From a virus, in IMG/VR virus record IMGVR_UViG_3300044940_000380, positions 1-59,474 of that record: a stretch of 59,474 bases of DNA. One strand, given 5' to 3'. The notes below the pieces were generated by a model that worked only from the letters and a program-made list of their open reading frames with translations, did not search any database and was not told where the DNA came from. Position 1 is the first letter of the stretch. Each line of letters opens with the position of its first letter. Positions 21,999 through 56,963 of this stretch are shown one piece after another. Both the position numbers and the translations under genes were made by a program.

Positions 21999-22517
21999 TT
22001 AAAATTCATTTGTGGTTCTTGGAATATTGTTTGGACTCATGATTGGAAGTTTTATATTTGGATTTGGAAATGAAGTTGGCCATCTAGTTGCTAAAAGTCT
22101 GTTTTTTGCAATTCTAGATATGTTTACAGAATTCGATTGATTCCCACCAAGAACATAATAGTCTGTTGAATCTTCACCTACTAAAAATCCTACGTGGCCG
22201 CCTTCATTTCGAGAAAAAACTGCTATAGCCCCATAAACTGGAACCGTTGGAACACCAAAATGAATCCAATTTCTGGCCCAGTATGGATTCTTTGCTAATT
22301 CACCAGTGAAAGTTTCATTTGGTAATGATTTTTTAATGGCAGTTTCAACATAATCGCCACACCAAGGAAGTGCTTTTGGATCTCCAAGTGTTTTTCCATC
22401 GCTTTTTAACCAAGCTTTTAATTCTGCATTATTGTTAATCTCGTGTAATCCAAAAACTTTTTTACCTTCTACTATCCAAGGTAATTCAGTTTCTTTCTTT
22501 TTGAATAATCCAAACAT
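21999..22517 (-). CDS. NlpC/P60-type (TIGR02594) cell-wall peptidase
   Basis: A 172-residue protein with Cys53 in LPWCGDYVETAI, His108 in EGGHVGFLVGED and an Asn/Gln-containing GGNQSN at about 125, the catalytic pattern of TIGR02594/NlpC-P60 peptidases that cut peptidoglycan peptides. It stands alone on the reverse strand, 16 kb from the lysis cassette. It could be a second lysin or a virion-associated entry enzyme. A GATAAATA late-like box (22561-22554) precedes the start. Confidence 0.8.
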   Translation of the reverse strand: MFGLFKKKETELPWIVEGKKVFGLHEINNNAELKAWLKSDGKTLGDPKALPWCGDYVETAIKKSLPNETFTGELAKNPYWARNWIHFGVPTVPVYGAIAVFSRNEGGHVGFLVGEDSTDYYVLGGNQSNSVNISRIAKNRLLATRWPTSFPNPNIKLPIMSPNNIPRTTNEF

Positions 22518-22789: not shown

Positions 22790-22963
22790 ATGATCTACGC
22801 TGTCTATGATACTCAATTCGATACTCTGGATAGCCTCAAGGGGCTCAAAATTATCAATCATCTTGATGCTGTCTATGATGATTTTGATTCAATGCTGAAT
22901 GATTGGGCAGATCATATTATGGCCGGTACTCATGTCTTCTTTGTTCTTTTGGACGACAAATAA
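22790..22963 (+). CDS. Small protein (57 aa), unknown
   Basis: Opens MIYAVYDTQFDTLDSLKGLK and ends HVFFVLLDDK. It is G+C-richer than the surroundings and has an Asp-rich, beta-alpha look. It lies between a TTGACATT promoter and a good terminator, forming a one-gene unit. The ribosome-binding site is weak. Not recognised. Confidence 0.6.
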   Translation: MIYAVYDTQFDTLDSLKGLKIINHLDAVYDDFDSMLNDWADHIMAGTHVFFVLLDDK

Positions 22964-22988: not shown

Positions 22989-23022
22989 AAACTATCATGC
23001 TAATTTAGCAGATAGTTTTTTA
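22989..23022 (+). terminator. Intrinsic terminator
   Basis: AACTATC/GATAGTT outer stem enclosing GCTAA/TTAGC, then a T-run. Confidence 0.85.
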
Positions 23023-23119
23023 TGAATATTACGAAATTACAAAAATAAATAAAAAAAATGAATAACAATCATTATATAGAATTAATTAATATTTTTTCTA
23101 AACACTATATCATTTTCTG

Positions 23120-23147
23120 TTGACATTCATCAAAAATAGTATATACT
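23120..23147 (+). promoter_or_regulatory. TTGACATTCAT promoter for the tRNA region
   Basis: TTGACA 23120-23125, 16-base spacer, TATACT 23142-23147, about 95 bases before tRNA-Met. Confidence 0.8.
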
Positions 23148-23321: not shown

Positions 23322-23334
23322 AAGTAATTTAGTA

Positions 23335-23372
23335 TTGCTTACTTACTTCAGTTGGATAGAGCAAGTGCCTAA
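23335..23372 (+). pseudogene. tRNA 5'-half fragment
   Basis: CTTCAGTTGGATAGAGCAAG is a clear D-arm of a tRNA, but after it the sequence runs into AT-rich DNA with no anticodon arm or T-arm. A deletion remnant between two intact tRNAs. Confidence 0.55.
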
Positions 23373-23405
23373 ATTTAAATAAATAAATTAAAGATGATTT
23401 TTGAT

Positions 23406-23786: not shown

Positions 23787-23822
23787 AATTTCTTAGGAAG
23801 CGCCAAGTTTAATCGTCCTAGT

Positions 23823-23866
23823 ACCCGGGGCGATAGAGAAAGCCTGTCTCTTTACGCGGGTTTTTC
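23823..23866 (+). ncRNA. GC-rich structured element, terminator-like
   Basis: ACCCG (23823-23827) pairs with CGGGT (23857-23861); inside, CG/CG and AGAGA/TCTCT (23835-23839 with 23847-23851) close a 7-base loop; TTTTTCTT follows. It is far richer in G+C than its surroundings. It may end the tRNA-Met/Arg transcript or be part of a larger RNA. Confidence 0.5.
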
Positions 23867-23902
23867 TTGAGTGGGAATTAACCCATAATTAGTAAAGATA
23901 CG

Positions 23903-23925
23903 GTTACGCTGCCGCTCGGCGTAAC
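23903..23925 (+). ncRNA. Stem-loop GTTACGC/GCGTAAC
   Basis: Perfect 7-bp stem with a 9-base GC-rich loop inside the same G+C-rich patch. Possibly part of a non-coding RNA spanning about 23790-23975. Confidence 0.4.
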
Positions 23926-23979
23926 AAGAGATCAATGCACACTGAGTTATTCGGGGTGTATAGGGGCGGCCATATTTTT

Positions 23980-24058: not shown

Positions 24059-24227
24059 AAAAACAAAAGATTGATCGTAGCAAAATAAAAAAGAAATTAG
24101 AAATTCAAAAGTTAATAAACTTAATGATATATTTGACAAATAACTCATAATATTTTATCATAGTAGAAAAAAGATCAATAGTTTTATCATGATCATTTGT
24201 TGACTGTCGATATGTTAAATTTTGTTG

Positions 24228-24256
24228 TTGACATTCATCTGTGAATATGATATATA
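24228..24256 (+). promoter_or_regulatory. TTGACATTCAT promoter for the tandem RNA
   Basis: TTGACA 24228-24233, 17-base spacer, TATATA 24251-24256. The first downstream feature is the structured RNA at 24297, not a gene. Confidence 0.85.
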
Positions 24257-24296
24257 TTATATAGAAAATAAAAAAACTGCTTTTTGACAATATAAT

Positions 24297-24451
24297 GGCA
24301 CTGGCATAAAACGCACCGATGAGCTGGCTGTCGTAAACCCAGTGCTTTTATAAGTCTCTCGGATCTATTGGTTCGACATTTTTTCTGACAGTAACCCTGC
24401 CGACAAACTGGTTGTGGTAAACTCAGAAAAAGAAACCAAAGATCCGAGAGA
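24297..24451 (+). ncRNA. Tandem structured RNA with two copies of a 34-base core
   Basis: Copy A: stem 24298-24304/24339-24345 (GCACTGG/CCAGTGC) closes core 24305-24338. Copy B: stem 24380-24388/24423-24431 (TTTTTCTGA/TCAGAAAAA) closes core 24389-24422. Both cores are exactly 34 bases and share 23 positions, including CCGA at offset 11, CTGG at offset 19 and a terminal GTAAAC, while the closing stems are unrelated in sequence. Copy B sits on a longer stem: TCTCTCGGATC (24355-24365) with 24441-24451, plus TTGGTT/AACCAA. It has its own promoter and no reading frame. I do not match it to a known riboswitch or ribozyme. Confidence 0.75.
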
Positions 24452-24517
24452 AGCTAAAAAATACTATCTCAAATATATTTAATATTAACTAAAGAGCATT
24501 AATCATATTTAAATTTT

Positions 24518-24595
24518 GCCCTGATGGTGAAATTGGTAAACACAACGGACTTAAAATCCGTCTTTTTGTGGGTTCGAGTCCCACTCAGGGTACCA
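24518..24595 (+). tRNA. tRNA-Leu (TAA), short variable arm
   Basis: Complete, with CCA. Anticodon arm ACGGA-CTTAAAA-TCCGT, T-arm GTGGG-TTCGAGT-CCCAC, acceptor GCCCTGA/TCAGGGT. The variable region is only 6 bases, whereas bacterial Leu tRNAs have a long extra arm. Confidence 0.88.
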
Positions 24596-24601
24596 ATAAT
24601 T

Positions 24602-24675
24602 GCGGGTGTGATGTAATGGTAGCTTCTCAGCCTTCCAAGCTGATGGTACGGGTTCGATTCCCGTCACCCGCTCCA
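24602..24675 (+). tRNA. tRNA-Gly (TCC)
   Basis: Complete, with CCA. Acceptor GCGGGTG/CACCCGC, anticodon arm TCAGC-CTTCCAA-GCTGA, T-arm ACGGG-TTCGATT-CCCGT. Reads GGA. Confidence 0.93.
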
Positions 24676-24744
24676 AGTTAATATAATTTATTTAAGCTTC
24701 TACAACGAAATTGATATACGTAACAAATTCAAATTAAATATTTT

Positions 24745-24819
24745 TCCGCCTTAGCTTAGTTGGCAGAGCAAGTAGCTGTTAATCACTGAGTCGTAGGTTC
24801 AAGCCATACAGACGAAACC
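24745..24819 (+). tRNA. tRNA-Asn-like (anticodon GTT), degenerate
   Basis: TAGCTTAGTTGGCAGAGCA is a sound D-arm. The anticodon stem (AGTAG/TCACT) has one mismatch and one wobble around CTGTTAA; acceptor TCCGCCT/AGACGAA has two mismatches; no CCA. Same layout and length as the copy at 21872. Confidence 0.55.
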
Positions 24820-25291
24820 TATTTTGATTTAAACTTTGTCATTCAACCAAATTTATCAATTAAATCAGATTTTACTTTTTGAATAAAAGTTTATAATAAT
24901 TCTTATAATATGATAAAATTGTAGACACATAAACTTAAAGCATTTGTAATGAAAATCATAGAAGTTTGAATTTATCTATAAGTATCAATATTTCATTAAT
25001 AATTTTTTTTACATTTTTTTATTGTAAAAAATAGAAATATTGTTAATAATATTTTTGAATGGTGAATAAGATATTTAATCTTATTCGCCTTGTTTATATT
25101 ATTGTTTTGATTAATTTACATATAAAATAAATAAACAAAAAATGATATCAAAAATAATATTGATTACAAAGAAAATTATTTCTTAAATTTTAAGAAAAAC
25201 TCATTAATAACTTTTAATATAAAATGCTTTAAAAGTAAAAAACTTTAATTCATAATATCAAAAAATTCATTATTTATAGGAGATATTTTAA
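24820..25291. other. AT-rich spacer with hairpins
   Basis: No gene is visible. It has a TTTTTTAC/GTAAAAAA hairpin near 25007-25031 and the terminator-like hairpin listed at 25061. It separates the tRNA region from the repeat-protein island. Confidence 0.5.
25061..25094 (+). terminator. Terminator-like hairpin
   Basis: GGTGAATAAGAT/ATCTTATTCGCC (12 bp with one G-T pair; 25061-25072 with 25078-25089), 5-base loop, then TTGTTT. Confidence 0.7.
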
Positions 25292-26308
25292 ATGATTGTT
25301 TCAAATCAATTTATTTTTGAACAACTAATCGATGAACAAAGAAAAAACTTTTCTCATGTATGTATGACCGATAAAGCTCGTGCTGACACTGATCATTTTT
25401 TTGGTAAAGATAATGATATTGTTTACGGTGAGATTTCAAATGACGCTGGACATATAGAACACAAGAGTGAAATTCATCGCGCTGTAGAAAGACATATTGG
25501 TCAAAAAATTCATCAAGATGATTATAATTGTGGCATAATAAAAGATAAATATGGCCGAGATATTAATATTGTACATCTAATTAAAGATGAAAAATTAAAG
25601 AATGAATTTTTGTTAGATAATACACGCAAAAATTCAAAAAAAGATAGTCTATTTAAGACGACAACTGTTCGTGGTATTAAAATAATAGACAAAACAAACA
25701 ATGTGGAAGATTTACATCATTCAAAAGAATATTCGCAACATCAACTAAATTCTATGAGCTTCAATAATGGATTAGATGCACGACAATATTTAGAAAATGA
25801 AATCCGTCACGGAACTGTAGTTCATCGTGTTCATGATCATGCCGGTCAAGAAATTTATCATGCTACATTGCAACCTTATCATAATGATCAAGGTCATGTA
25901 GCCTATGATGTTGATTCAGAATATGGAATCAATCATCCGGTCTTTACAAAGACCGCTGTTGAAGTTGCAAAAAGGCTATCTGGCGAATACAAACCTGGTT
26001 TATTTAAGAAACATCCAGATGTATATAGTGAAAATGAAAAAGAATATATTCTTCATCCAAATGCAACAGCAGAACATTTACATAAAGCACTCAATGATAA
26101 AAACAAGAGCGTAAGAATTGCAGCTGCTAGACATCCAAATTTGAATTCAGATCATTTACATAAAGCATTAAATGATAAAAATTGGACTGTAAGAGCAATT
26201 GCTGCAAGCCATCCAAATGCAAATGCAGAACATTTACATAAAGCATTAAATGATGAAAATGCTTATGTAAGAGAAGCAGCAGCAAGAAATCCTAATTATA
26301 ATAAATAA
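25292..26308 (+). CDS. Repeat-protein family member A, putative packaged effector
   Basis: A 338-residue protein. Residues 1-10 (MIVSNQFIFE) resemble a capsid targeting peptide with an IxE site at Glu10. Residues 14-245 are the family domain (MTDKARADTDHFFGK, KSEIHRAVERHIGQ, IRHGTVVHRVHDH, VDSEYGINHP). Residues 255-332 are three 26-residue repeats of the form HPNANAEHLHKALNDEN..VREAAA, like leucine-rich-variant/HEAT repeats. Two tandem TAA codons end it; in the same frame downstream lies the cap repeat found in family members D and E, so this copy is C-terminally truncated. AGGAGATA precedes the start. Role in the cell unknown. Confidence 0.75.
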   Translation: MIVSNQFIFEQLIDEQRKNFSHVCMTDKARADTDHFFGKDNDIVYGEISNDAGHIEHKSEIHRAVERHIGQKIHQDDYNCGIIKDKYGRDINIVHLIKDEKLKNEFLLDNTRKNSKKDSLFKTTTVRGIKIIDKTNNVEDLHHSKEYSQHQLNSMSFNNGLDARQYLENEIRHGTVVHRVHDHAGQEIYHATLQPYHNDQGHVAYDVDSEYGINHPVFTKTAVEVAKRLSGEYKPGLFKKHPDVYSENEKEYILHPNATAEHLHKALNDKNKSVRIAAARHPNLNSDHLHKALNDKNWTVRAIAASHPNANAEHLHKALNDENAYVREAAARNPNYNK

Positions 26309-26395
26309 TAATATCATTTAAAAAGAATATTGAATGATGAAAATAAAAAAGTAAGAAAAATTACAAAGAAAAAAACTATAAAAGGGGTATTTTAA

Positions 26396-27589
26396 ATGAT
26401 TACTTTAAAAAAATTTCTTACCGAATATCTAACTGAAGATCAAAAAAAGAGTTTTGCTGATGTATCAATGACTGATAAAGCAAGAGCTGATACAGATCAT
26501 TTCTTTGGTAAAGGAAATGATATAATTCATGGTGAAATTTCAACTCATTTTACAGGAAGAGGATTAAGAAAAAATTCATTCAAGACTTCAACCGCTCGTG
26601 GTACTAAAATAATTGACAAAACAAACAACACGGAAGATTTACATCATTCAGGATTAAATAAACGACAATATTTAAAAAATGAAATTCGTCATGGAACAGT
26701 CGTTTATCGTGTTCATGATCATGCCGGTCATGAAATTTATCATGCTACATTGCAACCTTATCATAATTATCAGGGTCATGTAGCCTATAATGTTGATTCA
26801 GAATATGGAGTCAATCATCCGATTTTTACAAAGAAAGCTTTTGAAGTTGCAAAAAAGCTATCTGGTGAATACAAACCTGGTGTATTTAAGAAACATCCAG
26901 ATGTATATAGTGAAAATGAAAAAGAATATATTCTTCATCCAAATGCAAATATAGAACATTTACATAAATCATTGAATAGTAGAAATATTGATGAAAGGTT
27001 AGCAGCAGCTGCTCATCCAAATTTAAGTTCAGTTCATTTACATAAAGCTTTAGAAGATGAAGATAGTCATGTAAGATATGTTGCTACATTACATCCAAAT
27101 TTGAGTTCAGATCATTTACATAAAGCATTAAACGATAAAGATTGGACTGTAAGAGCAAATGCAGCAAGCCATCCAAATGCAGCCGCAGAACATCTACATA
27201 AAGCATTGAATGATAAAGATGAAAGAGTAAGAGAAGCAGTAGCAAAAAATATAAATGTAAATGCAGAACATTTACATAAAGCATTGAATGATGAAGATGT
27301 CTTTGTAAGAAAAGCAGCTGCAAGTAATCCAAACGCAAATCCCGAACATTTGAATAAAGCATTGAATGATAAAGATAAAAGAATAAGAGAAGCAGCAGCA
27401 AGTCATCCAAATGCAAATGCTGAAAATTTGTATAAAGCATTAAATGATGAAGATATCTTTATAAGAAAAATAGCAGCAAAACACCCAAACGCAAACACAG
27501 AAAATTTACATAAAGCATTGAATGATAAAAATAAAAGAGTAAGAGAATCAGTAAAAAGAAATCCTAACTATAAGATGTATTTTCAATGA
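26396..27589 (+). CDS. Repeat-protein family member B, putative packaged effector
   Basis: A 397-residue paralog of A. It starts MITLKKFLTE with LxE at Glu10. Compared with A, D and E it lacks about 75 residues of the N-terminal domain, including the KSE-HRAVERH helix and the KDKYGRD segment, going from GEISTHF straight into FKTSTARGTK. The IRHGTVVYRVHDHAG and VDSEYGVNHP blocks remain. Eight 26-residue repeats follow from about 179 to 388, then a short NPNYKMYFQ cap. AAGGGG precedes the start; its stop overlaps the next copy's ATG by ATGA. Confidence 0.75.
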   Translation: MITLKKFLTEYLTEDQKKSFADVSMTDKARADTDHFFGKGNDIIHGEISTHFTGRGLRKNSFKTSTARGTKIIDKTNNTEDLHHSGLNKRQYLKNEIRHGTVVYRVHDHAGHEIYHATLQPYHNYQGHVAYNVDSEYGVNHPIFTKKAFEVAKKLSGEYKPGVFKKHPDVYSENEKEYILHPNANIEHLHKSLNSRNIDERLAAAAHPNLSSVHLHKALEDEDSHVRYVATLHPNLSSDHLHKALNDKDWTVRANAASHPNAAAEHLHKALNDKDERVREAVAKNINVNAEHLHKALNDEDVFVRKAAASNPNANPEHLNKALNDKDKRIREAAASHPNANAENLYKALNDEDIFIRKIAAKHPNANTENLHKALNDKNKRVRESVKRNPNYKMYFQ

Positions 27590-28494
27590 TTAGGTTCAAA
27601 TAATTTTTTCTTGAATACTTAATTGATGAATAGTGAAATCGTTTTCCTCATGTATCTATGACAGATAAAGCGCGCGCTGATAGCGCGCGCTAATTACTCA
27701 TCATTTCTTTGGAAAAGGAAATGATATTGTTCATGGAGAAATTACTCATGATGCAGTGCATAATGAACACAAAAGTGAAGTACATCATGCTATTGAAAGA
27801 CATTTTGGTCAATAAATTCATCATGATGATTATCGCCGTGGAATTATTAAAGACAAATATGGACGGGACGTGAAGATCGGTCGACTTATCAAAGATGAAA
27901 AATTAAGAAATGCATTCGCTTCTGATTCTACAAGAGAAGGGTCAAGAAAAGGTAATACATTCAAGATGACAACTGTTCGTGGTATCGATGTTGCTGGTAA
28001 GACAAACAATACACCAGATCCACATTATCCAAAAGGACATTCATGCGCTCAATTGAGTTTTAAAAATGTAGACACCGGTTCAAATTGTCATTATCTAGAA
28101 CACGAAATTCGTCATGGAACTATCGCTCGATAAAGTTTATGATCATATAGGTCATGAAATCTATCGAGCTAAATTGCAGCCACATCATAACGAATATGGT
28201 CATGTTGCCTATGTTGTTGATTCAGAATATGGAATCAAACATCCTGCTTTTACGAAGAGCTCTCATGAAGTAGTAAAGAAATTATCTGGTAAATATAAAT
28301 CTGGCGTTTTCAAAAAATATAACGCTGAACATCTACATAAAGCACTGAATGATAAAGATAAAAGAATAAAACAAGCAGCAGCAAAAAATCTAAATGCTAA
28401 TAAATATCATTTAGAAAGAGCATTGAATGATGAAAATGAAAGAATAAGAAAAGCTGCAAAGGAAAATCCAAATTATAGGAAATATTTTAAATGA
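27586..28494 (+). pseudogene. Repeat-protein family member C, pseudogene
   Basis: Aligns with D and E but is broken many times. After ATG 27586 the frame hits TAA where others have CAA, then TAG-TGA where others have CAA-AGA. A 20-base-scale insertion around 27676-27692 makes a GC-only palindrome. Another TAA replaces a Gln-following codon near 27813. A +1 shift near 28120 follows IRHGT. Only one and a half repeats plus the cap remain. Open pieces survive at 27870-28133 and 28114-28494. ATGA overlaps at both ends are kept, showing it was once part of the coupled array. Confidence 0.85.
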
Positions 28495-29825
28495 TCACGT
28501 TCAAACATTTTCTTCTTGAATACTTAACTGACGAACAAAGAAAACGTTTTGCTCATGTAAAAATGACCGATAAAGCTCGAGCCGACACGGATCATTTCTT
28601 TGGAAAAGATAATGATATAGTTCATGGTGAAATTTCAATTGATGCAGGGCATCATGAACACAAGAGTGAAGTACATCGCGCTGTTGAACGTCATATTGGT
28701 CAAGAAATTCACCACGATGACTATCGCCGTGGATTGATAAAAGATAAGTATGGAAGAGATATTAAAATTGGACGTTTAATCAAAGACGAGAAATTAAGAA
28801 ATGCATTCGCTTCTGATTCGACAAGAGAAGGAGTAAAAAAAGGTAGTTTATTTAAAACATCAACTGTTAGAGGAATTGAAGTTGCCGGTCAAACAAATAG
28901 CACACCAGATCCACATCATCCAAAAGGACATTCTTGGGCACGGCTTAGTTGTAAAAATGTAGATACTGGTTCAAAAAAACACTATTTAGAAAATGAAATC
29001 CGTCATGGAACTGTTGTTCATCGTGTTCATGATCATACAGGACAAGAAATCTATCGCGCTACTTTACAGCCTTATCATAATGAACGAGGTGACGTAGCTT
29101 ATACCGTAGATTCAGAATATGGAATCAAAAACCCTGCCTTCACAAGAAGTGCTCATGAAGTAGCAAAAAAACTTTCTTGTGAATTCAAACCAGATTTATT
29201 CAAAAAACATCCAGAAGTATATGATGACAATGGTATAAAACATATTCTACATCCAAAAACTACACATGAAGATATTACAAAAGCTTTATCTAATAAAGAT
29301 TCTAATATAAGAGCAGCAGCAGCAAGTCATCCAAATGCAACTGCAGATCATTTACATAAAGCACTTAATGACGAAGATTGGGCTGTAAGATTAGCCGCAA
29401 CAACACACAAAAATGCAAATGCTGAACATTTACATAAGGCATTAAATGATGAATATTTTAAAATAAGAAAAATTGTTGCGAGTCATCCAAACGCAAATGC
29501 TGAACATTTGCACAAAGCGTTGAATGATGAATATTTCTTTATAAGAAAAATAGCAGCAAGTCATCCAAATGCAAATGCTGAACATTTACATAAAGCATTG
29601 AATGATGAAGATTTTTCTGTAAGAGAAGTAGCAGCAAGTCATCCAAATGCAAATGCAGAACACCTGCATAAAGCTTTAAATGATAAATATTGGATTGTAA
29701 GAGAGTCCGCAGCAAGAAATCCTAATGTTGATAAATATCATTTAGAAAGAGCATTGAATGATGAAAATGAAAGAGTAAGAAAAGCTGCAAAGGAAAATCC
29801 AAACTATAAAAGGTATTTTCAATGA
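28491..29825 (+). CDS. Repeat-protein family member D, putative packaged effector
   Basis: A 444-residue, apparently complete member. MITFKHFLLE at 1-10 closely resembles the T4 internal-protein targeting sequence, with LLE as the protease site. Domain 11-245 has MTDKARADTDHFFGK, SEVHRAVERHIGQEIHHDD, KDKYGRDIKIGRLIKDEK, FASDSTREG, HPKGHSW.-LSCKNVDTGS, IRHGTVVHRVHDHTGQEIYRA and VDSEYGIKNP. It is very His- and Asp-rich. Seven 26-residue repeats follow from about 253, then a cap NPNYKRYFQ. Repeats share near-identical DNA, a substrate for recombination. Start overlaps the previous stop by ATGA. Confidence 0.8.
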   Translation: MITFKHFLLEYLTDEQRKRFAHVKMTDKARADTDHFFGKDNDIVHGEISIDAGHHEHKSEVHRAVERHIGQEIHHDDYRRGLIKDKYGRDIKIGRLIKDEKLRNAFASDSTREGVKKGSLFKTSTVRGIEVAGQTNSTPDPHHPKGHSWARLSCKNVDTGSKKHYLENEIRHGTVVHRVHDHTGQEIYRATLQPYHNERGDVAYTVDSEYGIKNPAFTRSAHEVAKKLSCEFKPDLFKKHPEVYDDNGIKHILHPKTTHEDITKALSNKDSNIRAAAASHPNATADHLHKALNDEDWAVRLAATTHKNANAEHLHKALNDEYFKIRKIVASHPNANAEHLHKALNDEYFFIRKIAASHPNANAEHLHKALNDEDFSVREVAASHPNANAEHLHKALNDKYWIVRESAARNPNVDKYHLERALNDENERVRKAAKENPNYKRYFQ

Positions 29826-31228
29826 TTAGATTCAAACAATTCCTTATCGAATACTTAACTGACGAACAAAGAAAACGTTTTGCTCATGTATCGATGACTG
29901 ATAAAGCGCGAGCTGATACAGATCATTTCTTTGGTAAAGGTAATGATATAGTTCATGGTGAGATTTCAACTGATGCTGGTCATCAATTTCATAAGAGTGA
30001 AATTCATCGTGCTGTTGAACGCCATCTTGGACAAGAAATTCACCACGATGACTATCGTCGTGGATTGATAAAAGATAAGTATGGTCGAGATGTGAAAATT
30101 GGACGTTTGATCAAAGACAATAAATTAAGGAATGCATTTGCTTCTGATTCGACAAGAGAAGGAGTAAAAAAAGGTAATGTATTCAAGACTTCAACGGTTC
30201 GCGGTATTGAAGTTGCCGGTCAAACAAATAGCGCACCAGATCCACATCATCCAAAAGGTCACTCTTGGGCTCAGCTGAGTTGTAAAAATGTTGTCAATGG
30301 AATAAACAGTGATTTTCTATATAATGAAATTCGTCATGGTACCGTAGTTCATCGCGTTCATGATCATACCGGCCAAGAAATTTATCGTGCTACTTTGCAG
30401 CCTCATCATAATGAAGAAGGTCATGTGGCTTATGCTGTGGATTCAGAATATGGAATCAAGAATCCAGCTTTCACAAGAAGTGCTCATGAAGTAGCAAAAA
30501 AGCTTTCTGGTGAATCCAAACCTGGTGTTTTTGTTAAACATCCACAAGTATATGATGATAATGGTATAACACATATTCTACATCCAAATGCAAATGAAGA
30601 ACATTTATATAAAACATTATCACATCCGGATGAAAAAGTAAGAAAAATGGTTTTAGATTATCCAAATCTGAAACCAAAACATATTTCAAAAGCATTAGAC
30701 GATATTTCTGATAATATAAGAATAGCTGCTGCACAACATCGAAATGCAAATCATGAAAATTTACATAAAGCATTAAATGATAATCATTATGCCGTAAAAG
30801 CAGTAGCAGCAAATCATCCAAATGCAACCGCAGAACATCTACATAAAGCATTAAATGATGAGTTTTACGGAGTAAGAGAAGCTGCTGCAAGTAATCCAAA
30901 TGCAACCGCAGAACATTTACATAAAGCACTTAACGATGAGGTTGATTATGTTAGATATGCTGCAATAAACAATCCAAATGCAAATGCTGAACATATTCAT
31001 AAAGCATTAAATGATAAAGTAATATCAATAAGAAAGGTTGCAGCAGAACATAAAAATGCAAGTGCAAATAATTTACATAAAGCATTAAATGACGAGAATC
31101 ATGCCGTGAGATTAGCTGCAATATTAAATCCAAATGCGAATGAAGAACATGCAAAGAAAGCACTAAAAGATGACTTCTATATGGTTAGAAATGTTGCAAA
31201 ACATAAATTAAATTTAAAAAATGAATAA
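29822..31228 (+). CDS. Repeat-protein family member E, putative packaged effector
   Basis: A 468-residue member, the longest. MIRFKQFLIE at 1-10 with LIE site. The N-terminal domain is about 85% like D. After residue 251 come eight repeats that are more diverse than in B and D (for example YPNLKPKHISKALDDISDNI and HRNANHENLHKALNDN), and the end KLNLKNE differs from the other caps. Coupled to D by ATGA. This is the last intact member of the array. The N-terminal domain is not an enzyme family I know. Confidence 0.8.
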   Translation: MIRFKQFLIEYLTDEQRKRFAHVSMTDKARADTDHFFGKGNDIVHGEISTDAGHQFHKSEIHRAVERHLGQEIHHDDYRRGLIKDKYGRDVKIGRLIKDNKLRNAFASDSTREGVKKGNVFKTSTVRGIEVAGQTNSAPDPHHPKGHSWAQLSCKNVVNGINSDFLYNEIRHGTVVHRVHDHTGQEIYRATLQPHHNEEGHVAYAVDSEYGIKNPAFTRSAHEVAKKLSGESKPGVFVKHPQVYDDNGITHILHPNANEEHLYKTLSHPDEKVRKMVLDYPNLKPKHISKALDDISDNIRIAAAQHRNANHENLHKALNDNHYAVKAVAANHPNATAEHLHKALNDEFYGVREAAASNPNATAEHLHKALNDEVDYVRYAAINNPNANAEHIHKALNDKVISIRKVAAEHKNASANNLHKALNDENHAVRLAAILNPNANEEHAKKALKDDFYMVRNVAKHKLNLKNE

Positions 31229-48493: not shown

Positions 48494-49024
48494 ATGACCA
48501 ACTACGCTCAGATCGAACAGCGGACCGCTTTTCTTCATACCGAATTCGGTGAAGAACTTGCTCGTCGGTGGTTCGGCGATGAATCCGTCAACGCACTTCC
48601 TCGTTACAAGCGCGGTAAACATAAGGGTAAAATCAAAGGTGCAGTCACTTGGTCAAAAGTTCTTCGTGGCGGTTGGGTTCGTGATGGCTTGTATGGTTAC
48701 GTTGAAAACCGCGTTGGTCACGTCTTTGAACGCAAGCTTCACGAGATTTATTTCAACTTTAATGGAACTCATGTGGGTCGAGTTTTGCGCGATCTTGATA
48801 AAGAACAAGAAATGAATCAGATTTCTGATACTGTTCGTATTGATATCGACAATCAAATTCGCAAAATTGATCGCTATCGTTCCAAACTTGAAACCACTAT
48901 TCTTTCCGAAAAGTTTGATGAATATGCTGAAGATTTTCGGCGAATCATTTCTGAATACAATGAAGAAATCGCTGCTCTTATCGAGCAGCTCAAAAAACTT
49001 CAAATAAATAAATTTAATGAGTAA
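48494..49024 (+). CDS. Conserved protein, unknown; GC-richer than neighbours
   Basis: A 176-residue protein. N-terminal half is compact and basic (ARRWFGDESVNALPRYKRGK, GAVTWSKVLRGGWVRDGLYG); the second half is coiled coil (IDNQIRKIDRYRSKLET and ALIEQLKKLQ). Codons in the first half are clearly G+C-richer than elsewhere, suggesting transfer or selection for high expression. Overlaps the start of the homing-endonuclease-like gene by 8 bases. Confidence 0.72.
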   Translation: MTNYAQIEQRTAFLHTEFGEELARRWFGDESVNALPRYKRGKHKGKIKGAVTWSKVLRGGWVRDGLYGYVENRVGHVFERKLHEIYFNFNGTHVGRVLRDLDKEQEMNQISDTVRIDIDNQIRKIDRYRSKLETTILSEKFDEYAEDFRRIISEYNEEIAALIEQLKKLQINKFNE

Positions 49025-50390
49025 AAAACAAAAAATACCCTCAAAAGAAGAAATATTAGAACTTTATGAAAGAGAAGGATGTACAATTTCTTCTCTTTCA
49101 AGATACTATAATAAGTCAAATCCTACAATAAGATCTTGGCTCATTCATTATGGAATACCAAGAAAATCTCAAAAACAGGCTTCTGCAGAAGCCAATAAAC
49201 TTAAAAGTAGCTCTCCAAGTAAAACTGAATTAAAAGAAGCATATTCAAAATCTTCATTAAAAGAAATTCAAAGTACTTTCAAGATAAGACAAAACAAGAC
49301 TTATAGTTTATTAAAAGAATATAATTTACCTATAAGAACACATTCTGAAGCGACATCTTTAGGTAAAAAGAAACAATATTCAGAAAAGCAATTTTCTAAA
49401 GAATTATTGGAAGAAATATATGAAAGAAATCAACCAATCGAAAAATTAGCTTTTCAACTTTCTGTATCTGTTTCTCATTTAAAAAAACTTTTTAAATCAT
49501 ATAATATTAAACCAGAAATACTTTATAGAAGCAAAAAAGAAATGGAATTATTTGATTATTGTAGAGAAAAATATAAAGAAGATGAATGGGTCTATTGTGA
49601 TAAGAGTGTAATAGCTCCATATGAACTTGATATAGTGAATAAAACAAGAAAAATTGCAATCGAATATTGCGGATTGTATTGGCATTCAGAAAATACCGGT
49701 AAAAAAGATTCAAATTATCATTTCAACAAATTTCTTATGTGCAAAAAAGCCGGTTATAAGCTGATAACTGTTTTTGAAAATGATGACATGAATAAAATCA
49801 AATCTTTACTTGATACTTTACATCAAAAAAATAAAAGAATATATGCAAGAAACACAGAAATTGTTGAAATAAATCCTTATTCAGCTCGTCGTTTTTGTGA
49901 AAAATATCACATGAATGGTTTTGTCGGTGGTAAGTATCATTATGGTCTTGTGCACAATTTAAATTTAGTTATGGTATGTTCTTTTGGTGTATCTCGTTTC
50001 AATAAAAAAATGGAATATGAGTGCACACGAATGGCATGTGCATCAGGTATTACTGTTGTTGGAGGAGCTTCTAAACTTTTCAAGCACTTCATCAAAACAG
50101 TAAAACCGTCTTCGTGTGTTACATATGCAGATCTTCGTTTTGGTGAAGGTGACGTTTATAAACATTGTGGATTTAAATTTGAACAATATACTGGAGCAAA
50201 TTATTGGTATTTTCATAAAGATAACACGTCAGTTCTTTTTTCAAGAGTAAAATTTCAAAAACACAAATTGAAAGATAAACTGCAATTTTTTGATGAAAAC
50301 TTGACAGAATATCAAAATATGTTAGCAAATGGTTGGGACAGAATATGGGACTGTGGAAATGCTAAATACATTTGGCATTCCAATGAATAG
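49017..50390 (+). CDS. Homing-endonuclease-like protein 1 (Vsr/EDxHD-type nuclease)
   Basis: A 457-residue protein. Residues 1-175 hold several helix-turn-helix modules (SSLSRYYNKSNPTIRSWLIH, EIQSTFKIRQNKTYSLLKEY, LAFQLSVSVSHLKKLFKSYN). Residues 195-260 have a PD-(D/E)XK-like Vsr-type core: YELDIVNKTRKIAIEYCGLY then WHSE and HFNKFLMCKKAGYKLITVFE. The C-terminal domain (285-450) is shared with three other genes here (RNTEIVEINPYSARRFCEKY, CSFGVSRFNKKMEYECTRMA). Free-standing phage endonucleases of this sort spread by cutting related genomes. Uses the stop of 48494 for coupling. Confidence 0.78.
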   Translation: MSKKQKIPSKEEILELYEREGCTISSLSRYYNKSNPTIRSWLIHYGIPRKSQKQASAEANKLKSSSPSKTELKEAYSKSSLKEIQSTFKIRQNKTYSLLKEYNLPIRTHSEATSLGKKKQYSEKQFSKELLEEIYERNQPIEKLAFQLSVSVSHLKKLFKSYNIKPEILYRSKKEMELFDYCREKYKEDEWVYCDKSVIAPYELDIVNKTRKIAIEYCGLYWHSENTGKKDSNYHFNKFLMCKKAGYKLITVFENDDMNKIKSLLDTLHQKNKRIYARNTEIVEINPYSARRFCEKYHMNGFVGGKYHYGLVHNLNLVMVCSFGVSRFNKKMEYECTRMACASGITVVGGASKLFKHFIKTVKPSSCVTYADLRFGEGDVYKHCGFKFEQYTGANYWYFHKDNTSVLFSRVKFQKHKLKDKLQFFDENLTEYQNMLANGWDRIWDCGNAKYIWHSNE

Positions 50391-52065
50391 AGAAGAAGTT
50401 ATTTCTTTTATATTAGAAACTATAAAGAAAAGTCCATATGGATATATGAAGATTTTAAAATCAAAACGCTCTGAAATAGAACAGCATTTTACTTTAGTCA
50501 CAGATTCATTTAAAGAAAATTTATATTTACTTGTTCATGGTATAAAGGAAATTCCTTTATGTCAAGTGTGTAAAGAAAAGAAGAAAGTCTTTTTTGATTT
50601 CAAAAAAGGTTATGGAAAAACATGTTCAAAATTATGTTCTGCAAAATTGGGCGGAGAAGCAAATAAAAGAAAATTGTCAAAAATAACACTTGAAGAAAAA
50701 AGAAAAATTGAAGAAAAAAGAATTAACACAAATCAGTTATTATATGGAGTAAATTATCCTCTTCAAAGAGAGGAATCAAAGAAAAAATTCAAACAAACTT
50801 GTAAAGAGCGATACGGTGATTCACATTTTATGAAAAATGAATATTTTTATGAACACTATAAATCAAAAATAAAAGAAAAATATGGAGTAGAATTTTACTT
50901 TCAAACTGAAGAATCTAAATCTAGAAGTTCGATATTGATTCATCAAAAACATTCAAACAACTTTTTCAAAAATTATTTCTTTCAAAGATATGGTGTAGAA
51001 AATTATTATCAAACAGAAGAAGGTTTACGAAAACAATTAAGAGAAAGAAATTGTGAATTTCTTTTTGAAACAATTGAACAATATTTAGACGGAAGGACAT
51101 ATCTTGAGATAGCAAATCAATTCAATATAACAGATCATATGATCAAAAAAATAATTTTATTTAAAGGAATTGATTATACACCAATTAAGTATGAAAGTTC
51201 TTTTGAAAGAGAAATAAAAGAATTCTTATTGAAACATATAAGCCCTCAAGATATGATATTCAATGATAGAACAATTTTAAATGGTCTTGAATTAGATGTG
51301 CTGATACCAAACAAAAATTTAGCAATAGAATGTAATGGTGTATATTATCACACAGACCAATTTAAAGAACCAGAATATCATAAACAAAAATATGAGATGT
51401 GCAGAGCTCTTAATATTCTTTTAATACAAATAGATGATATAGATTATTATAAAAATAAAGAAAAATGGCAATATTTTATACTATCTAAACTTAATAATAA
51501 TATGAAAACTGTATATGCAAGAAACTGTGAAATAAAGGAAGTTTCATCTCAAGATGCTAAAGTTTTTATAGAAAACAATCATCTTCAGGGATATGCTAAT
51601 TCAAGATTTAAATTCGGATTATATGATAATAAATCAAATGAATTAGTTGCTATATCAACTTTTGCTAAACCAAGATTTTCTCAAAAATATGATTATGAGC
51701 TTGTAAGATTCTGTTCTAAAAGAGGAATCAGAGTTTTGGGTGGTTTTTCTAAATTAATTTCACATTTTTATAAAAATGTGATGAAAAAAGACGAAACATG
51801 TGTTTCTTATGCAAATTGTTTTTGGTCAAATGGTGATGTTTATGAAAAAACTGGATTTTCTTTTGTGAGAACTACAAGTCCAAATTATGTATGGTCGGAT
51901 GGAAAGACAAAATTGAGTAAATATCAATCTCAAAAGAAGAAATTATTTGAAAAATACGGTGATATCGTAAAAACAGAAGAAGATTTTATGCGAAATGTTC
52001 TTCGAATGAATAGATATTATGATGCTGGAAATAGAATTTATGTATTAAAAAAAGGCGAGATTTAA
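50383..52065 (+). CDS. Homing-endonuclease-like protein 2
   Basis: A 560-residue relative of the other three. Start ATG 50383 overlaps the previous stop; an earlier ATG at 50329 is possible. Zinc-ribbon-like CQVCKEKKKVFFDFKKGYGK then TCSKLC (about 60-85); KYG/RYG repeat modules (NQLLYGVNYPLQ, CKERYGDSH, KIKEKYGVEFYFQ, QRYGVENYYQ) that resemble DNA-binding NUMOD-type repeats; a helix-turn-helix near 245-265; nuclease core LELDVLIPNKNLAIECNGVY then YHTD and YEMCRALNILLIQI; shared C-terminal domain. It converges on the major capsid gene. Confidence 0.78.
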   Translation: MNREEVISFILETIKKSPYGYMKILKSKRSEIEQHFTLVTDSFKENLYLLVHGIKEIPLCQVCKEKKKVFFDFKKGYGKTCSKLCSAKLGGEANKRKLSKITLEEKRKIEEKRINTNQLLYGVNYPLQREESKKKFKQTCKERYGDSHFMKNEYFYEHYKSKIKEKYGVEFYFQTEESKSRSSILIHQKHSNNFFKNYFFQRYGVENYYQTEEGLRKQLRERNCEFLFETIEQYLDGRTYLEIANQFNITDHMIKKIILFKGIDYTPIKYESSFEREIKEFLLKHISPQDMIFNDRTILNGLELDVLIPNKNLAIECNGVYYHTDQFKEPEYHKQKYEMCRALNILLIQIDDIDYYKNKEKWQYFILSKLNNNMKTVYARNCEIKEVSSQDAKVFIENNHLQGYANSRFKFGLYDNKSNELVAISTFAKPRFSQKYDYELVRFCSKRGIRVLGGFSKLISHFYKNVMKKDETCVSYANCFWSNGDVYEKTGFSFVRTTSPNYVWSDGKTKLSKYQSQKKKLFEKYGDIVKTEEDFMRNVLRMNRYYDAGNRIYVLKKGEI

Positions 52066-52108
52066 ATCTCGCCTTAGTTCGATTCGGTTGATTCCGAATT
52101 CTTTTTTT
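52052..52108. terminator. Double terminator between convergent genes
   Basis: AAGGCGAGATTT/AAATCTCGCCTT (52052-52075, fully palindromic) followed by ATTCGG/CCGAAT (52082-52099) and a T-run to 52108. The first covers the stop codon of the endonuclease-like gene. Confidence 0.88.
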
Positions 52109-52109
52109 A

Positions 52110-53414
52110 TTAAAGAAGGTTGATGACGCGCATCTTTCTGTAGTAAACGTTACTATTTGGAGTGAGTGCTCCAAGATTTTGTGCAGCACCTCCAGCGAAT
52201 GGGTTTGCAACCATGCCATATCTTGTTTTGAAGCCGATTTTTGGCTGGAAGCTGTGCTCACCGACGGCGCGGTACATTTGTAGAGGTACATATGGGCAAT
52301 AGAAAATACCCGCGTCAAATGCAGAACTACCCTTATAACCAACAATTAGATAGTTTCCTCCAGAATATGGATCAATATAAACACGGTAGCGGCTATTAAG
52401 AACACCAGCAAAAGTAATACCCGTATCATCTACGTTAAGAGCATTGCTGTTAAGAGCTGGTGCATAATCAAGAACACCGGCCATTTGCAATGCTGAAGCT
52501 ACGTCAGAGGAACAAATAACGATGTTACCCTTCCCTCTACGAGTCGCTTTTGCGACGGCGTTAGCTTCTGTTTCAATTTGCATCATGAGCCCTTTATACT
52601 TTTCAACTGACCAGCGACCATTTGCATCTACATCAAGGTCGAAAATACCACTGTTTGCAGTATTAACAGCACCAGTAACTGCAGCACTATATATTGTACG
52701 AATAACTTCTCTGTTAATCTCAACGAGAATTTCAGATGAAAGAATATTTGCAAGCTCAGTTTCAGCATCCAAACCATGAATTGCTTTGAGGTCCTGTGCA
52801 ATTTCAGTGGTGTATTCTGTTTTTAGTGCGCGGCTTTTAGCAGTTACAGTTACTTTTTCAATTGAGAATGCCATTTCTGCGAAGTCGTTAGTTCCTGGAA
52901 TAGAACCAAGAGCTTCTGCATCGGCAGTATTCATAGCAGTACCGTAGTTAGTATTGTTTGGAAGTCCTGCCGTGTTTGGAGTGCCTGTACCAGAAAATGC
53001 AGTATTTGCTTCATCGTAAAATGCTTCTGGACCTGACATTGAATTGTATCTAGAACGCATTGCAAAAATAAGACCTGTAGGACCCGTCATTGGCTGAACG
53101 CCTGCAATATCATATGCAATGAGATTGGGCATTGCACGACGAACTAGACTGATAAGAACTGGATCGTAACCAGCAACAGGACCAGCTGCTGGAGAAGAAC
53201 CACCAAATCCTCCAGTTCCAACCGCATTAGTTGGAGTTTCAAAAAGAAGTGAAGTCATAGAAACACCAGAACGGTCTTCCATAAGAGCTTTTTCTGTGTT
53301 TTCAAGAACCACAGCAGTCACAAACTTCTTTTTATTATCATTAATTGGATCAAAGGCTTTATGCTCAAGTAGAGGACCCCACTTTGACATCAAGTCTCTG
53401 TTTAATTGATTCAT
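52110..53414 (-). CDS. Major capsid protein, T4 gp23-like
   Basis: A 434-residue major head protein. N-terminal propeptide MNQLNRDLMSKWGPLLEHK; a likely prohead-protease cut at LFE59-T60 (T4 gp23 is cut at Glu65). VRRAMPNLIAYDIAGVQPM then TGPTGLIFAMRSRY (about 92-125), LKTEYTTEIAQDLKAIHGLD, and the end FQPKIGFKTRYGMVANPF are strong gp23 signatures. Slightly shorter than T4 gp23 (521). AAGGAGAGACAAA precedes the start and a late box lies upstream. G+C is raised, as usual for a highly expressed gene. Confidence 0.95.
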   Translation of the reverse strand: MNQLNRDLMSKWGPLLEHKAFDPINDNKKKFVTAVVLENTEKALMEDRSGVSMTSLLFETPTNAVGTGGFGGSSPAAGPVAGYDPVLISLVRRAMPNLIAYDIAGVQPMTGPTGLIFAMRSRYNSMSGPEAFYDEANTAFSGTGTPNTAGLPNNTNYGTAMNTADAEALGSIPGTNDFAEMAFSIEKVTVTAKSRALKTEYTTEIAQDLKAIHGLDAETELANILSSEILVEINREVIRTIYSAAVTGAVNTANSGIFDLDVDANGRWSVEKYKGLMMQIETEANAVAKATRRGKGNIVICSSDVASALQMAGVLDYAPALNSNALNVDDTGITFAGVLNSRYRVYIDPYSGGNYLIVGYKGSSAFDAGIFYCPYVPLQMYRAVGEHSFQPKIGFKTRYGMVANPFAGGAAQNLGALTPNSNVYYRKMRVINLL

Positions 53415-53446
53415 TTTGTCTCTCCTTATTGTTGTTATTCTAGTTT

Positions 53447-53454
53447 TATTTATA
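53447..53454 (-). promoter_or_regulatory. Late promoter box TATAAATA before the capsid gene
   Basis: Exact TATAAATA on the reverse strand, 33 bases before the major capsid ATG. Confidence 0.85.
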
Positions 53455-53472
53455 AATTTTTATTTTTTACAA

Positions 53473-54453
53473 TTATTTGAAAACACGATTATTAAGAGCT
53501 TTTACTATAGCATCAACAGATGAATAACCGGAAGGAGAAGATTTTGTTTCTTCTGTAAGAAGAGGTTCTTCTTCATCGTTGAATTTTTCATTAAATGTGG
53601 ACACGGAAGAATTTTTCTTTTTGAAGAAAGATTCTTTTAAAGTCTGAAGAGAAGAAGCATATTCGTCAAGATCGCTCTTATCTATTTTTTCAGAAAGTAT
53701 TTTAAGTCTTTCTTTTTGAGAAACTGTAAGTCCTTCTGCAATTTCGTTAAAGACCTTTTCTGCTTGCATCTCAGAAATTAATTTAATAAGTTCAATATTT
53801 TCATTAATAACTTCATTTGCTTTCTTTTCTAATTCAACTACTTGATTCTCAAGAACAGATACAACATCAACTTTTTCGTCATCTATATCTATATTATGCT
53901 CTATAAATAACGTTTTTAGTCCTTCCATAAAGGACTCTGCCATTTCTACTTTAATACCAGATTCAATAGCAATTTTATTATCTTCCATCCATTCTGAAAT
54001 GATATAATCAAGATATGAATCAAGACTTTCTACAATTTCATCAATTATATCATTTACTCTACTTTCAATTTTATTAGACATTTCTTCTTCGATTTGTTCA
54101 GTAATTTTTGATGCCTTTATGGTAGCAGCTTCATTTACTGCTGCTTCAAAAACCATTGAAACTTTTTTCTTAAAATCTTCAGAAAGATCCATTCCTTCAA
54201 AAATTGAAGCTATGGATTCTCGTATAGAAATTTCTTCAAGAGAATCTTCTTCATCAAGATCTTCATCTTCTTTAAGATTTTTTTCTAATTCTTCTTCGTC
54301 TTCGGGCATTGTTAGTTTTTTTGGATCCTGATCAACCTTTTTATTTAAATCTGCTAGACGCTTTTTTACTTTTCCTCCAGCTGGTATAACTGGGCTTGGA
54401 ACACTAGAAACACCGTCATCAGCAACAAATTTTTCTTTTAAATCATGTGACAT
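53473..54453 (-). CDS. Prohead core scaffold, T4 gp22-like
   Basis: A 326-residue, very acidic, coiled-coil scaffold. ATG at 54453 (MSHDLKEKFV) is chosen because AAGGAGAT sits just before it; an ATG 30 bases upstream lacks a site. Residues 25-90 are charged and disordered (EDEEELEKNLKEDEDLDEED); 100-270 are helical. Several LxE/IxE sites fit processing by the gp21 protease. Gene order gp21, gp22, gp23 is as in T4, but with an endonuclease-like gene between gp21 and gp22. Confidence 0.9.
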   Translation of the reverse strand: MSHDLKEKFVADDGVSSVPSPVIPAGGKVKKRLADLNKKVDQDPKKLTMPEDEEELEKNLKEDEDLDEEDSLEEISIRESIASIFEGMDLSEDFKKKVSMVFEAAVNEAATIKASKITEQIEEEMSNKIESRVNDIIDEIVESLDSYLDYIISEWMEDNKIAIESGIKVEMAESFMEGLKTLFIEHNIDIDDEKVDVVSVLENQVVELEKKANEVINENIELIKLISEMQAEKVFNEIAEGLTVSQKERLKILSEKIDKSDLDEYASSLQTLKESFFKKKNSSVSTFNEKFNDEEEPLLTEETKSSPSGYSSVDAIVKALNNRVFK

Positions 54454-54488
54454 TTTTATCTCCTTTTTATTGGACATTTTCATATTAT

Positions 54489-54496
54489 TATTTATA
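54489..54496 (-). promoter_or_regulatory. Late promoter box TATAAATA before gp22
   Basis: Exact TATAAATA on the reverse strand, 36 bases before the scaffold ATG. Confidence 0.75.
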
Positions 54497-54517
54497 ATAA
54501 TTCATTTATCAAATGAA

Positions 54518-56219
54518 TTAATGAAAATTCGAGTATACAAAACAATAATTACCAGCATCTAATAATTTTTTATTATTTATAATTTGAATATTTTCTTTTA
54601 CATTTTTGAAAATATGATTAGAGTTACTATGATAAATTTTATTCATTCCAATTTCTTTAAAAACTGATCCATCAGAAAATCTTGCATCTGAATAAGCTAT
54701 TACGTTTCTTGGACTGAAATCTTCAATGAATTTTTTCCAAAGTTTTTCTGCTCCTCCTGATACATAAAAACCAAGACGAGAACATATTGTAATTATTTTC
54801 CATTTATGGATATCAGATGTATCTTGAGAAAAAGAAGCAATTTGAACAATGTTGTTTTCTGAATCTATAAGACCATAATTAACAGATCCCGGTTCACAAA
54901 ATTCTATACTATTATCATTGATAAATTTTTGAGCAGAATTAAAAGAGATTTGAATGATCCGACAATTTTCAATATTTATTCTTTTAAAAAATTTTAAAAC
55001 ATCTTTCAAAAGAAACATTATTTTCTCATACTTTTCAATCAATTCCCAATCAAAAAATTGTAATAAACGTATATTTGCTTTTTCTGCTGCAATTGCTTTT
55101 TCTCTATGTTGATCACCAACTTTATCTTCTGTATGCCAATAAGAACCATGATATTCTATACCCAAATTATAATCTGGAAGCCAAATATCTATTTCTTTTG
55201 GAAAAATTACAGAACGAGTGTTTCTTATTATTTTGATATTCGGGTCAATTTCAAGTAACATTTTACAAATGATTTCTTCACCGCTTGAAGTAGAACAAGA
55301 ATAAGATCTGTCTAATATCGAAAATCCATTCTTTTTAAATTTTCGAGCAAGTGTATTGCGATCTATTCCTAAAGATTTTGCGAGCTGATTGATTGAAAGT
55401 GAATCGTTTTTATAATAATCATTATAAAGATTTTCAACATCATAAGTAAGAATATGAAATAGATCTTCACCATAATAATTGAATTTTTTTCTCTTTGAAG
55501 ATTTTTGAGATATTAAAGAAGATTGCATAGCATTACGTACATTGTATTTTTCTTCATTTGTTTTTTCTATTTTAGAAAGAAGAATTTTTGAAGAAAATCC
55601 TCTGCCGCCATATTTAGATTTTAGTGTATTTGTTATAGATTCTATAATTTTTTGAGAGCCAAATGGATTTTCTGAACCATATTTTTCTAAACACGTCTTT
55701 TTGATTTGATCAGAATTTCTATAATTTTCATTTCCATATTTTTTTAATTTTGTTTCTTTAGCTTTACTTATATTTACAAAGAATTCATCTCCATATAAGA
55801 TCTTTTTTGTCCTTCTTGCTTTGATGACCATAGAATTGTAATCAAAGAATGTTTCTGATCCATATTTGTTCAAACAAGTTTGTTTACGTTTTTTAACAGC
55901 AGAATTCCAATCTATTTTTTCTTTTCTTTTTTTCTTGTACACATTCTTTATGAGCATAAACGCGTTTTCTTCTATTACTTATATTGAAAAAATCTAATTC
56001 ACCGCCACAAATATTACAAAAAGGTATAACGCAATTTTTGTTGATAACAATATCAACAATCAAATCGATTGGTGCTCTTTTTAAAAAAGTCTCATAAAAA
56101 AGATTTTCTACAATAGAATCTTTAGTTAAATCTCTTTTAGAATTAAGAGTATTGTTTTTAGTTAATAATTTTAATTCTTTGAATAATTCTAAAAAAGGCG
56201 TGTCACATGGTGTTATCAT
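54518..56219 (-). pseudogene. Homing-endonuclease-like protein 3, frameshifted
   Basis: Two overlapping reverse frames (56219-55893, 108 residues; 55957-54518, 479 residues) make one protein when joined. The first holds the zinc-ribbon (PFCNICGGELDFF then AHKEC). The second holds KYG modules (CLNKYGSETFF, LKKYGNENYRNS, CLEKYGSENPFGS), a helix-turn-helix, nuclease core IDIWLPDYNLGIEYHGSYWH then HREKAIAAEKANIRLLQFFD and the shared C-terminal domain. The break is in an A-rich tract near 55905-55930, where one extra base separates the frames. It may be a mutation, a recoding site or a sequencing error. Lies between gp22 and gp21. Confidence 0.8.
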
Positions 56220-56230
56220 GATTTAAAAAA

Positions 56231-56932
56231 TCAATAGTTATTTTTAAGATTATTTACAAAATCTTCAAAAATTCTTATTGCTTTTCTTTCATCAATTTTT
56301 GGACTTGTAACTTTAGATTTTGGTTTGATATATTCTTTTTTCAATTCTTTAACTGTTTCTTGAATATACTGTTGAACTTTCCAAGTTCCAGAAGCTATAT
56401 CATAATAGTATTCTGTATTTTCCATTATACCATTTACAAAGCATTGAGGACCGCTAGGATCCGTCACGATATCTATAGCAGCAAGATGAAAATCATCTTG
56501 AACTTCCATAATACCATTTTTTATGGGCTTTACAGATCCAAGACCTCTTGTAGAAACGCCTATTTTCACGCCTTCTTCGATAAATGTTTTTGCAATTTGG
56601 CCCATAGGAGTTGAAAGAATTTTAGCTTTACCTAAGAAATTTGAACCTTCACGTTTCATTTCTGTAATCAAATGCGAAACACGATCCTGATTAATCTGAG
56701 GTCCATTTGGATGACCGAGTTCACCAAGAGCTCTGTTTGTTTTGATAAATGTTTCATTATATCTGTTCATTTCTTTTTCTAAGACATGTGAAGGATAGAT
56801 GCGGCCGTTCCTATTCTGAATATCACCTTGCATAAAAATGCCTGTAATATAAAGAGACTTTTTTCCACTTTCGTTTGATTCAGTAAGAACTTCACAATTT
56901 TCGTTAAATACTTCTGTTATAAGTAGTGCCAT
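56231..56932 (-). CDS. Prohead protease, T4 gp21-like
   Basis: A 233-residue serine protease that matures the head. SLYITGIFMQGDIQNRNGRI then YPSHVLEKEM (26-55), GELGHPNGPQIN with His74, GVSTRGLGSV with Ser127, and AAIDIVTDPSGPQCFVNGIM give the gp21-type herpesvirus-assemblin-like fold and catalytic residues. T4 gp21 cuts after (L/I)xE; that motif is present in the capsid protein and in effector families of this window. The C-terminal 45 residues are basic and probably removed on activation. Confidence 0.92.
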   Translation of the reverse strand: MALLITEVFNENCEVLTESNESGKKSLYITGIFMQGDIQNRNGRIYPSHVLEKEMNRYNETFIKTNRALGELGHPNGPQINQDRVSHLITEMKREGSNFLGKAKILSTPMGQIAKTFIEEGVKIGVSTRGLGSVKPIKNGIMEVQDDFHLAAIDIVTDPSGPQCFVNGIMENTEYYYDIASGTWKVQQYIQETVKELKKEYIKPKSKVTSPKIDERKAIRIFEDFVNNLKNNY

Positions 56933-56963
56933 TTTTTCCTCTTAATTTTTTGTTATTATTATT

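What the first reader, a model, noticed from the sequence alone, without database searches (positions are those of the whole stretch)
24297..24451. Tandem structured RNA with a repeated 34-base core, possibly a new RNA class
Two cores of exactly 34 bases share 23 positions (CCGA at offset 11, CTGG at offset 19, terminal GTAAAC) but are closed by perfectly paired stems of unrelated sequence (7 bp and 9 bp). Conserved loop and freely varying stem is the signature of a selected RNA structure. Copy B is mounted on a further 11+6 bp helix. The unit has its own TTGACATTCAT promoter, no reading frame, and lies among tRNAs.
Basis: partly seen in the sequence, partly recalled or inferred. Interest (0 to 1): 0.88.

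Follow-up and report, generated by a model that had tools for sequence, protein, structure and literature searches.

The report
Twin-hairpin RNA in phage tRNA operon
A T4-like phage carries, just ahead of three of its tRNA genes, a small non-coding RNA built from two neighbouring hairpins that display the same 34-base motif; no known RNA family and no relative could be found, so it looks like an orphan phage RNA whose partner and function still have to be found by experiment.

Summary
Observation confirmed. Two 34-nt cores (24305-24338, 24389-24422) match at 23/34 positions. Each is closed by a perfect stem. Of 105 such 34-nt-loop hairpins in the window (5,458 pairs) this pair is the most alike; chance is about 1e-6 per position. 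The region folds far better than shuffles (z -6.3). The stems are not wholly unrelated: three of seven pairs (CTG/CAG) are identical, four are compensated.

The window is a T4-like phage fragment. No Rfam family matches. Pattern scans of 2.9 million viral contigs and 85,000 prokaryote genomes, plus a covariance model run on T4, T2, seven other T4-like genomes, 30 related contigs and about 800 bacterial genomes, found no homolog; the examined near misses lie in protein genes or lack the stem. Covariation can therefore be judged only between the two copies.

Best reading: an orphan phage ncRNA of the tRNA operon, analogous in position but not homologous to T4 RNAC/RNAD (functions unknown), presenting one binding motif twice, probably to a protein. 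Rivals: a put-like antiterminator leader, a tandem aptamer, or a relic. "New RNA class" is possible but rests on one locus.

The parts
24278..24498 (+). whole predicted RNA: three-way junction closed by helix P1 (24278-24286 with 24490-24498), arms A and B inside
   Evidence: MFE and base-pair probabilities about 0.8-1.0 for P1 in four different transcript contexts; MFE and centroid
24291..24352 (+). arm A: outer helix 24291-24295/24348-24352, closing stem 24298-24304/24339-24345, core inside
   Evidence: fold; sequence
24305..24338 (+). core A (34 nt), CATAAAACGCACCGATGAGCTGGCTGTCGTAAAC
24355..24451 (+). arm B: long helix 24355-24373/24432-24451, then 9-bp closing stem, then core B
   Evidence: z -7.1
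24389..24422 (+). core B (34 nt), CAGTAACCCTGCCGACAAACTGGTTGTGGTAAAC, 23/34 identical to core A
24228..24256 (+). promoter-like TTGACA (24228-24233) with poor -10 TATATA; its 19-nt surround is 89% repeated at 23113-23131 ahead of tRNA-Met
   Evidence: sequence, repeat D15; not listed by the scan
24133..24161 (+). better-scoring promoter-like site TTGACA-17-TATCAT (11/12)
24518..24819 (+). tRNA-Leu(TAA), tRNA-Gly(TCC), tRNA-Asn(GTT), presumed co-transcribed downstream
   Evidence: co-transcription inferred from lack of a convincing intervening terminator
25061..25089 (+). probable intrinsic terminator of the transcript (12-bp stem, U-rich tail)
   Evidence: strong local fold

Best explanation
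It is a structured non-coding RNA of a T4-like phage, made as the 5' part of a tRNA-operon transcript (promoter about 24130-24260, terminator about 25089) and released from it by the enzymes that mature the tRNAs. The RNA is a three-way junction whose two arms display the same 34-nt motif: a small bulged hairpin plus a conserved A-rich internal loop. The duplicated motif most likely is a protein-binding site presented twice, so that one RNA holds two copies of, or a dimer of, one host or phage protein (a trans-acting decoy or scaffold RNA). Shown here: sequence repeat, strong predicted fold, compensated stems, non-coding status, operon position. Inferred: transcription, processing, protein binding, decoy role.
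For: Repeat far above chance. Strong fold, z -6.3 and -7.1. Identical core length and conserved unpaired bases while 4 of 7 closing-stem pairs change on both sides and none breaks. Enclosing helix P1 with pair probability about 0.8-1.0. No ORF. Sits directly before tRNA-Leu-Gly-Asn, with a terminator after them and no convincing one between. Stable RNAs of unknown role in the tRNA operon are precedented: T4 rnaC/rnaD (PMC3014915, PMC9697503).
Against: No homolog, so conservation is judged from two paralogs only. No expression data. The -10 of the nearest promoter is poor. The inner helix pairs in different registers in A and B by prediction. No partner protein identified.
Confidence: 0.42

Rival explanations
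1. A cis-acting leader: two adjacent hairpins emerge just after the promoter and bind the transcribing RNA polymerase, making it read through pauses and terminators into the tRNA operon, as HK022 put RNA does.
For: Two bulged hairpins separated by two unpaired bases near the start of a transcription unit. HK022 putRNAs are about 70 nt, two stem-loops, located downstream of early promoters (PMC9378689).
Against: No match of the motif model to the part of the HK022 genome examined, 27500-30100 (best 8.7 bits). The unit here is about three times as long and enclosed by P1. Only one strong terminator-like site lies downstream, far away.
Confidence: 0.18
2. A tandem ligand-binding aptamer (riboswitch-like) controlling the tRNA transcript by attenuation; a weak terminator-like hairpin followed by CATTTTTTCT lies at 24359-24376, inside the left arm of unit B, and would compete with unit B.
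For: Conserved bases concentrate in internal loops; overlapping alternative terminator-like hairpin.
Against: Terminator-like hits are few and near chance (3 found, 1.4 expected). Unit B is very stable (-41 kcal/mol). No protein gene directly downstream to regulate.
Confidence: 0.1
3. An RNA antitoxin or decoy that mimics the antitoxin repeats of a host type III toxin-antitoxin system (ToxI-like).
For: ToxI-family repeats are 34-36 nt (PMC5086642), and phages can evolve pseudo-ToxI (same paper).
Against: Type III repeats are tandem pseudoknots processed by the toxin; here each core sits inside its own hairpin, 84 nt apart, and only two diverged copies exist. No Rfam match.
Confidence: 0.08
4. 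A relic or spacer: a duplicated hairpin stabilising or guiding processing of the tRNA precursor, or a decaying element, without a specific partner.
For: The tRNA region shows decay (tRNA remnant near 23331-23380). No homologs found.
Against: Neutral decay would break stem pairs; none of 14 is broken between copies, and 13 of about 20 unpaired core positions are identical.
Confidence: 0.17

Closest known systems
Phage T4 rnaC/rnaD (species 1 and 2 RNA)
   Same: small structured non-coding RNAs inside the tRNA operon of a T4-like phage; function unknown (PMC3014915, PMC9697503)
   Different: no sequence or covariance-model match; rnaC ends in a tRNA-like T arm and neither shows a repeated core; they lie after tRNA-Arg rather than before tRNA-Leu
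HK022 put RNA
   Same: two adjacent bulged hairpins near the start of a phage transcript
   Different: about 70 nt and known to act on RNA polymerase (PMC9378689); no match of our model in HK022 27500-30100
Type III antitoxin RNAs (ToxI, antiQ)
   Same: repeat unit of about 34-36 nt
   Different: those are tandem pseudoknot repeats next to a toxin gene; here two separate hairpins

Membership tests
Any Rfam 15 family | score above the family's gathering threshold | tested here: not met
   only tRNAs pass in the whole window; best sub-threshold match in the region is 22.7 bits, gathering 47, on the opposite strand
T4 rnaC/rnaD homologs | sequence/structure similarity to T4 rnaC or rnaD | tested here: not met
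   no match of R1 inside rnaC or rnaD with filters off; different folds
T4 rnaC/rnaD-like tRNA-operon RNAs (functional kind) | non-coding structured RNA located in the phage tRNA operon | tested here: met
T4 rnaC/rnaD-like tRNA-operon RNAs (functional kind) | accumulates as a stable RNA in infected cells | not testable with these tools
   needs RNA-seq or Northern blot
HK022 put RNA | sequence/structure match to put | tested here: inconclusive
   R1 gives at most 8.7 bits in HK022 27500-30100, but putL/putR are not annotated in the record, so the stretch may not hold both; Rfam gave no hit in this stretch either
HK022 put RNA | antitermination in cis through the RNAP beta' zinc-binding domain | not testable with these tools
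   needs transcription assays
Type III toxin-antitoxin RNA | tandem repeats of about 34-36 nt in an array next to a toxin gene | tested here: not met
   two copies, 84 nt start to start, each inside its own hairpin; neighbouring genes 25292 onward are HEAT-repeat proteins and the ten proteins scanned gave no toxin hit

The most novel reading that the evidence does not exclude
The 34-nt motif in duplicated arms is a new class of phage RNA with its own binding partner or activity, at present known from one phage lineage only.
Probability: 0.35. Interest if true: 0.75.

Novelty: new variant of a known kind. Interest (0 to 1): 0.5.

Why it matters
T4 has long been known to carry two tRNA-operon RNAs of unknown function, and no trans-acting regulatory RNA had been characterised in T4 by the 2010 review PMC3014915. 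A different T4-like phage with an unrelated but highly organised RNA in a comparable place suggests that tRNA operons are a recurring home for phage non-coding RNAs, and its built-in duplication of one motif makes the partner searchable by pull-down.

Tried and rejected
Pattern scans of viral contigs: strict 17-base consensus, 0 hits; 15-16-base relaxations, 99 and 101 stretches, of which the 80 listed in each were examined and none carries the closing stem at the right place beyond 4 bp; 3' half with stem, 7 stretches, none folding like the motif; variable loop, 11 stretches, none folding like the motif.

Genome contigs: 66 hits. Many share one repeated sequence that looks like conserved protein code; the best by model, L224 at 33.9 bits, lies in an ORF resembling a histidine kinase on the other strand, and L193 lies in a long ORF.

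Covariance model R1: no hit in 30 related viral contigs; nothing below E=1 in 9 T4-like genomes, with the window as positive control at 5e-19. About 295 Bacteroidota-class and 274 plus 240 proteobacterial-class genomes gave scattered hits of at most 30.7 bits; all nine examined lie in long ORFs. Relatives of the neighbouring gene 25292-26308 lack tRNAs and the motif.

Known self-cleaving ribozymes: CCGATGAG..GTAAAC in copy A superficially recalls a hammerhead, but copy B lacks it and Rfam gives no match. RNA guides for the four HNH-type genes: those match phage homing endonuclease families and no RNA-guided nuclease domain, and no RNA family was found beside them. BLAST of phage and plasmid collections: no real match.

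Full report
What is there. The window is a 59-kb, 29% GC fragment of a T4-like phage: major head protein at 52110-53414 (-), scaffold, head protease, RNA ligase/tail-fibre attachment factor, thymidylate synthase, ribonucleotide reductase. The nearest MCP relatives are 75% identical in viral contigs and 66% in named phages. Seven tRNA genes lie between 21.9 and 24.8 kb. The finding lies between tRNA-Ala (ends 24058) and tRNA-Leu (starts 24518).

Check of the observation. The two 34-nt cores are real: 23/34 identical, the same length, each closed by a perfect stem. Random positions give 8.6 +/- 2.5 matches; the next best in the window has 20. Among 105 positions with a 34-nt loop and >=7 bp stem, the pair is the most similar of 5,458. 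Energy z-scores are -6.3 (24280-24465) and -7.1 (unit B); in a sliding scan of 21.3-25.3 kb, unit B is among the strongest folds on the + strand together with two terminator-like hairpins.

Anatomy. In a common structure both copies pair at all 14 positions, 5 of them through changes on both sides; sliding the partners destroys this. I put weight on the outer stem (4 compensated pairs, 3 identical, CTG/CAG) and on the CCG/UGG hairpin with a 6-base loop, which are favoured in both copies. The middle helix is favoured in different registers in A and B, so that part is uncertain. Conserved unpaired bases are CA..AA on the 5' side and U plus UAAAC on the 3' side. Arms A and B are separated by two bases, and a 9-bp helix, 24278-24286/24490-24498, with pair probability about 0.8-1.0 encloses both. 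No ORF of 25 codons or more covers the cores. The folding energy of the reverse strand is almost as good, so strand is argued from the promoters, the tRNAs and the G-U pairs, not from energy.

Transcription. TTGACA at 24228 is followed at 17 nt by a poor -10 (TATATA); the scan prefers TTGACA-17-TATCAT at 24133. The 19-nt TTTGTTGTTGACATTCATC also stands, 89% identical, before tRNA-Met (23113-23131, D15), so it may be a promoter type of this phage. The only strong terminator downstream is at 25061-25089, after tRNA-Asn. A transcript of RNA + Leu + Gly + Asn is the simplest reading (inference).

Relatives. Nothing in Rfam. No homolog by patterns in viral contigs or one-per-species genomes, nor by covariance model in T4, T2, Melnitz, phiN3, phiM12, DLP_6, S-8S56, S-SCSM1, HTVC008M, 30 related contigs and about 800 bacterial genomes. 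Near misses reach 33.9 bits against 64-67 for the two copies; all whose context I checked lie in protein genes. Patterns are exact and the model rests on two sequences, so distant homologs could be missed. The metagenome collection could not be scanned.

Interpretation. The evidence supports a selected, non-coding structured RNA (about 0.85). Its kind is best described as a tRNA-operon RNA like T4 RNAC/RNAD, whose functions are unknown (PMC3014915, PMC9697503), but it is not their homolog. The doubled motif argues for a partner bound twice; a protein partner in trans is my first choice (0.42), a put-like nascent-RNA antiterminator the second (0.18; PMC9378689), then relic, tandem aptamer and type III antitoxin mimic. 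None is tested beyond sequence. A claim of a new RNA class needs homologs or an activity.

Noticed in passing
window 23331-23380: Apparent remnant of a tRNA gene (acceptor/D-arm-like 'gcttacttacttcagttggatagagcaagtgcct' running into AT-rich sequence) between tRNA-Met and tRNA-Arg; ARAGORN does not call it.
   Followed up: no
window 23787-23979: GC-rich (about 48%) non-coding island of nearly 200 nt directly before tRNA-Ala(TGC), in a 29% GC genome; moderate fold (z about -1.2 to -1.8), no Rfam match.
   Followed up: partly
window 25292-31228: Cluster of large proteins with HEAT/LRV-type repeats (338, 397, 126, 444, 468 aa), those scanned against PHROGs having no or only a negligible match; the first has relatives in only a few viral contigs, one contig carrying two neighbouring copies (L082/L083).
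   Followed up: partly
window 49017-58646: Four large homing-endonuclease-like genes (phrog_3339/559, three with DUF7487) interspersed in the head gene cluster around gp23, gp22 and gp21.
   Followed up: partly
window 22996-23025: Strong hairpin AACTATC...GATAGTT followed by a T run, a likely terminator after the small ORF 22790-22963.
   Followed up: no
window 21999-22517: CHAP-like protein on the minus strand inside the tRNA region, matching the end of a baseplate hub/tail lysozyme family (phrog_1259).
   Followed up: no
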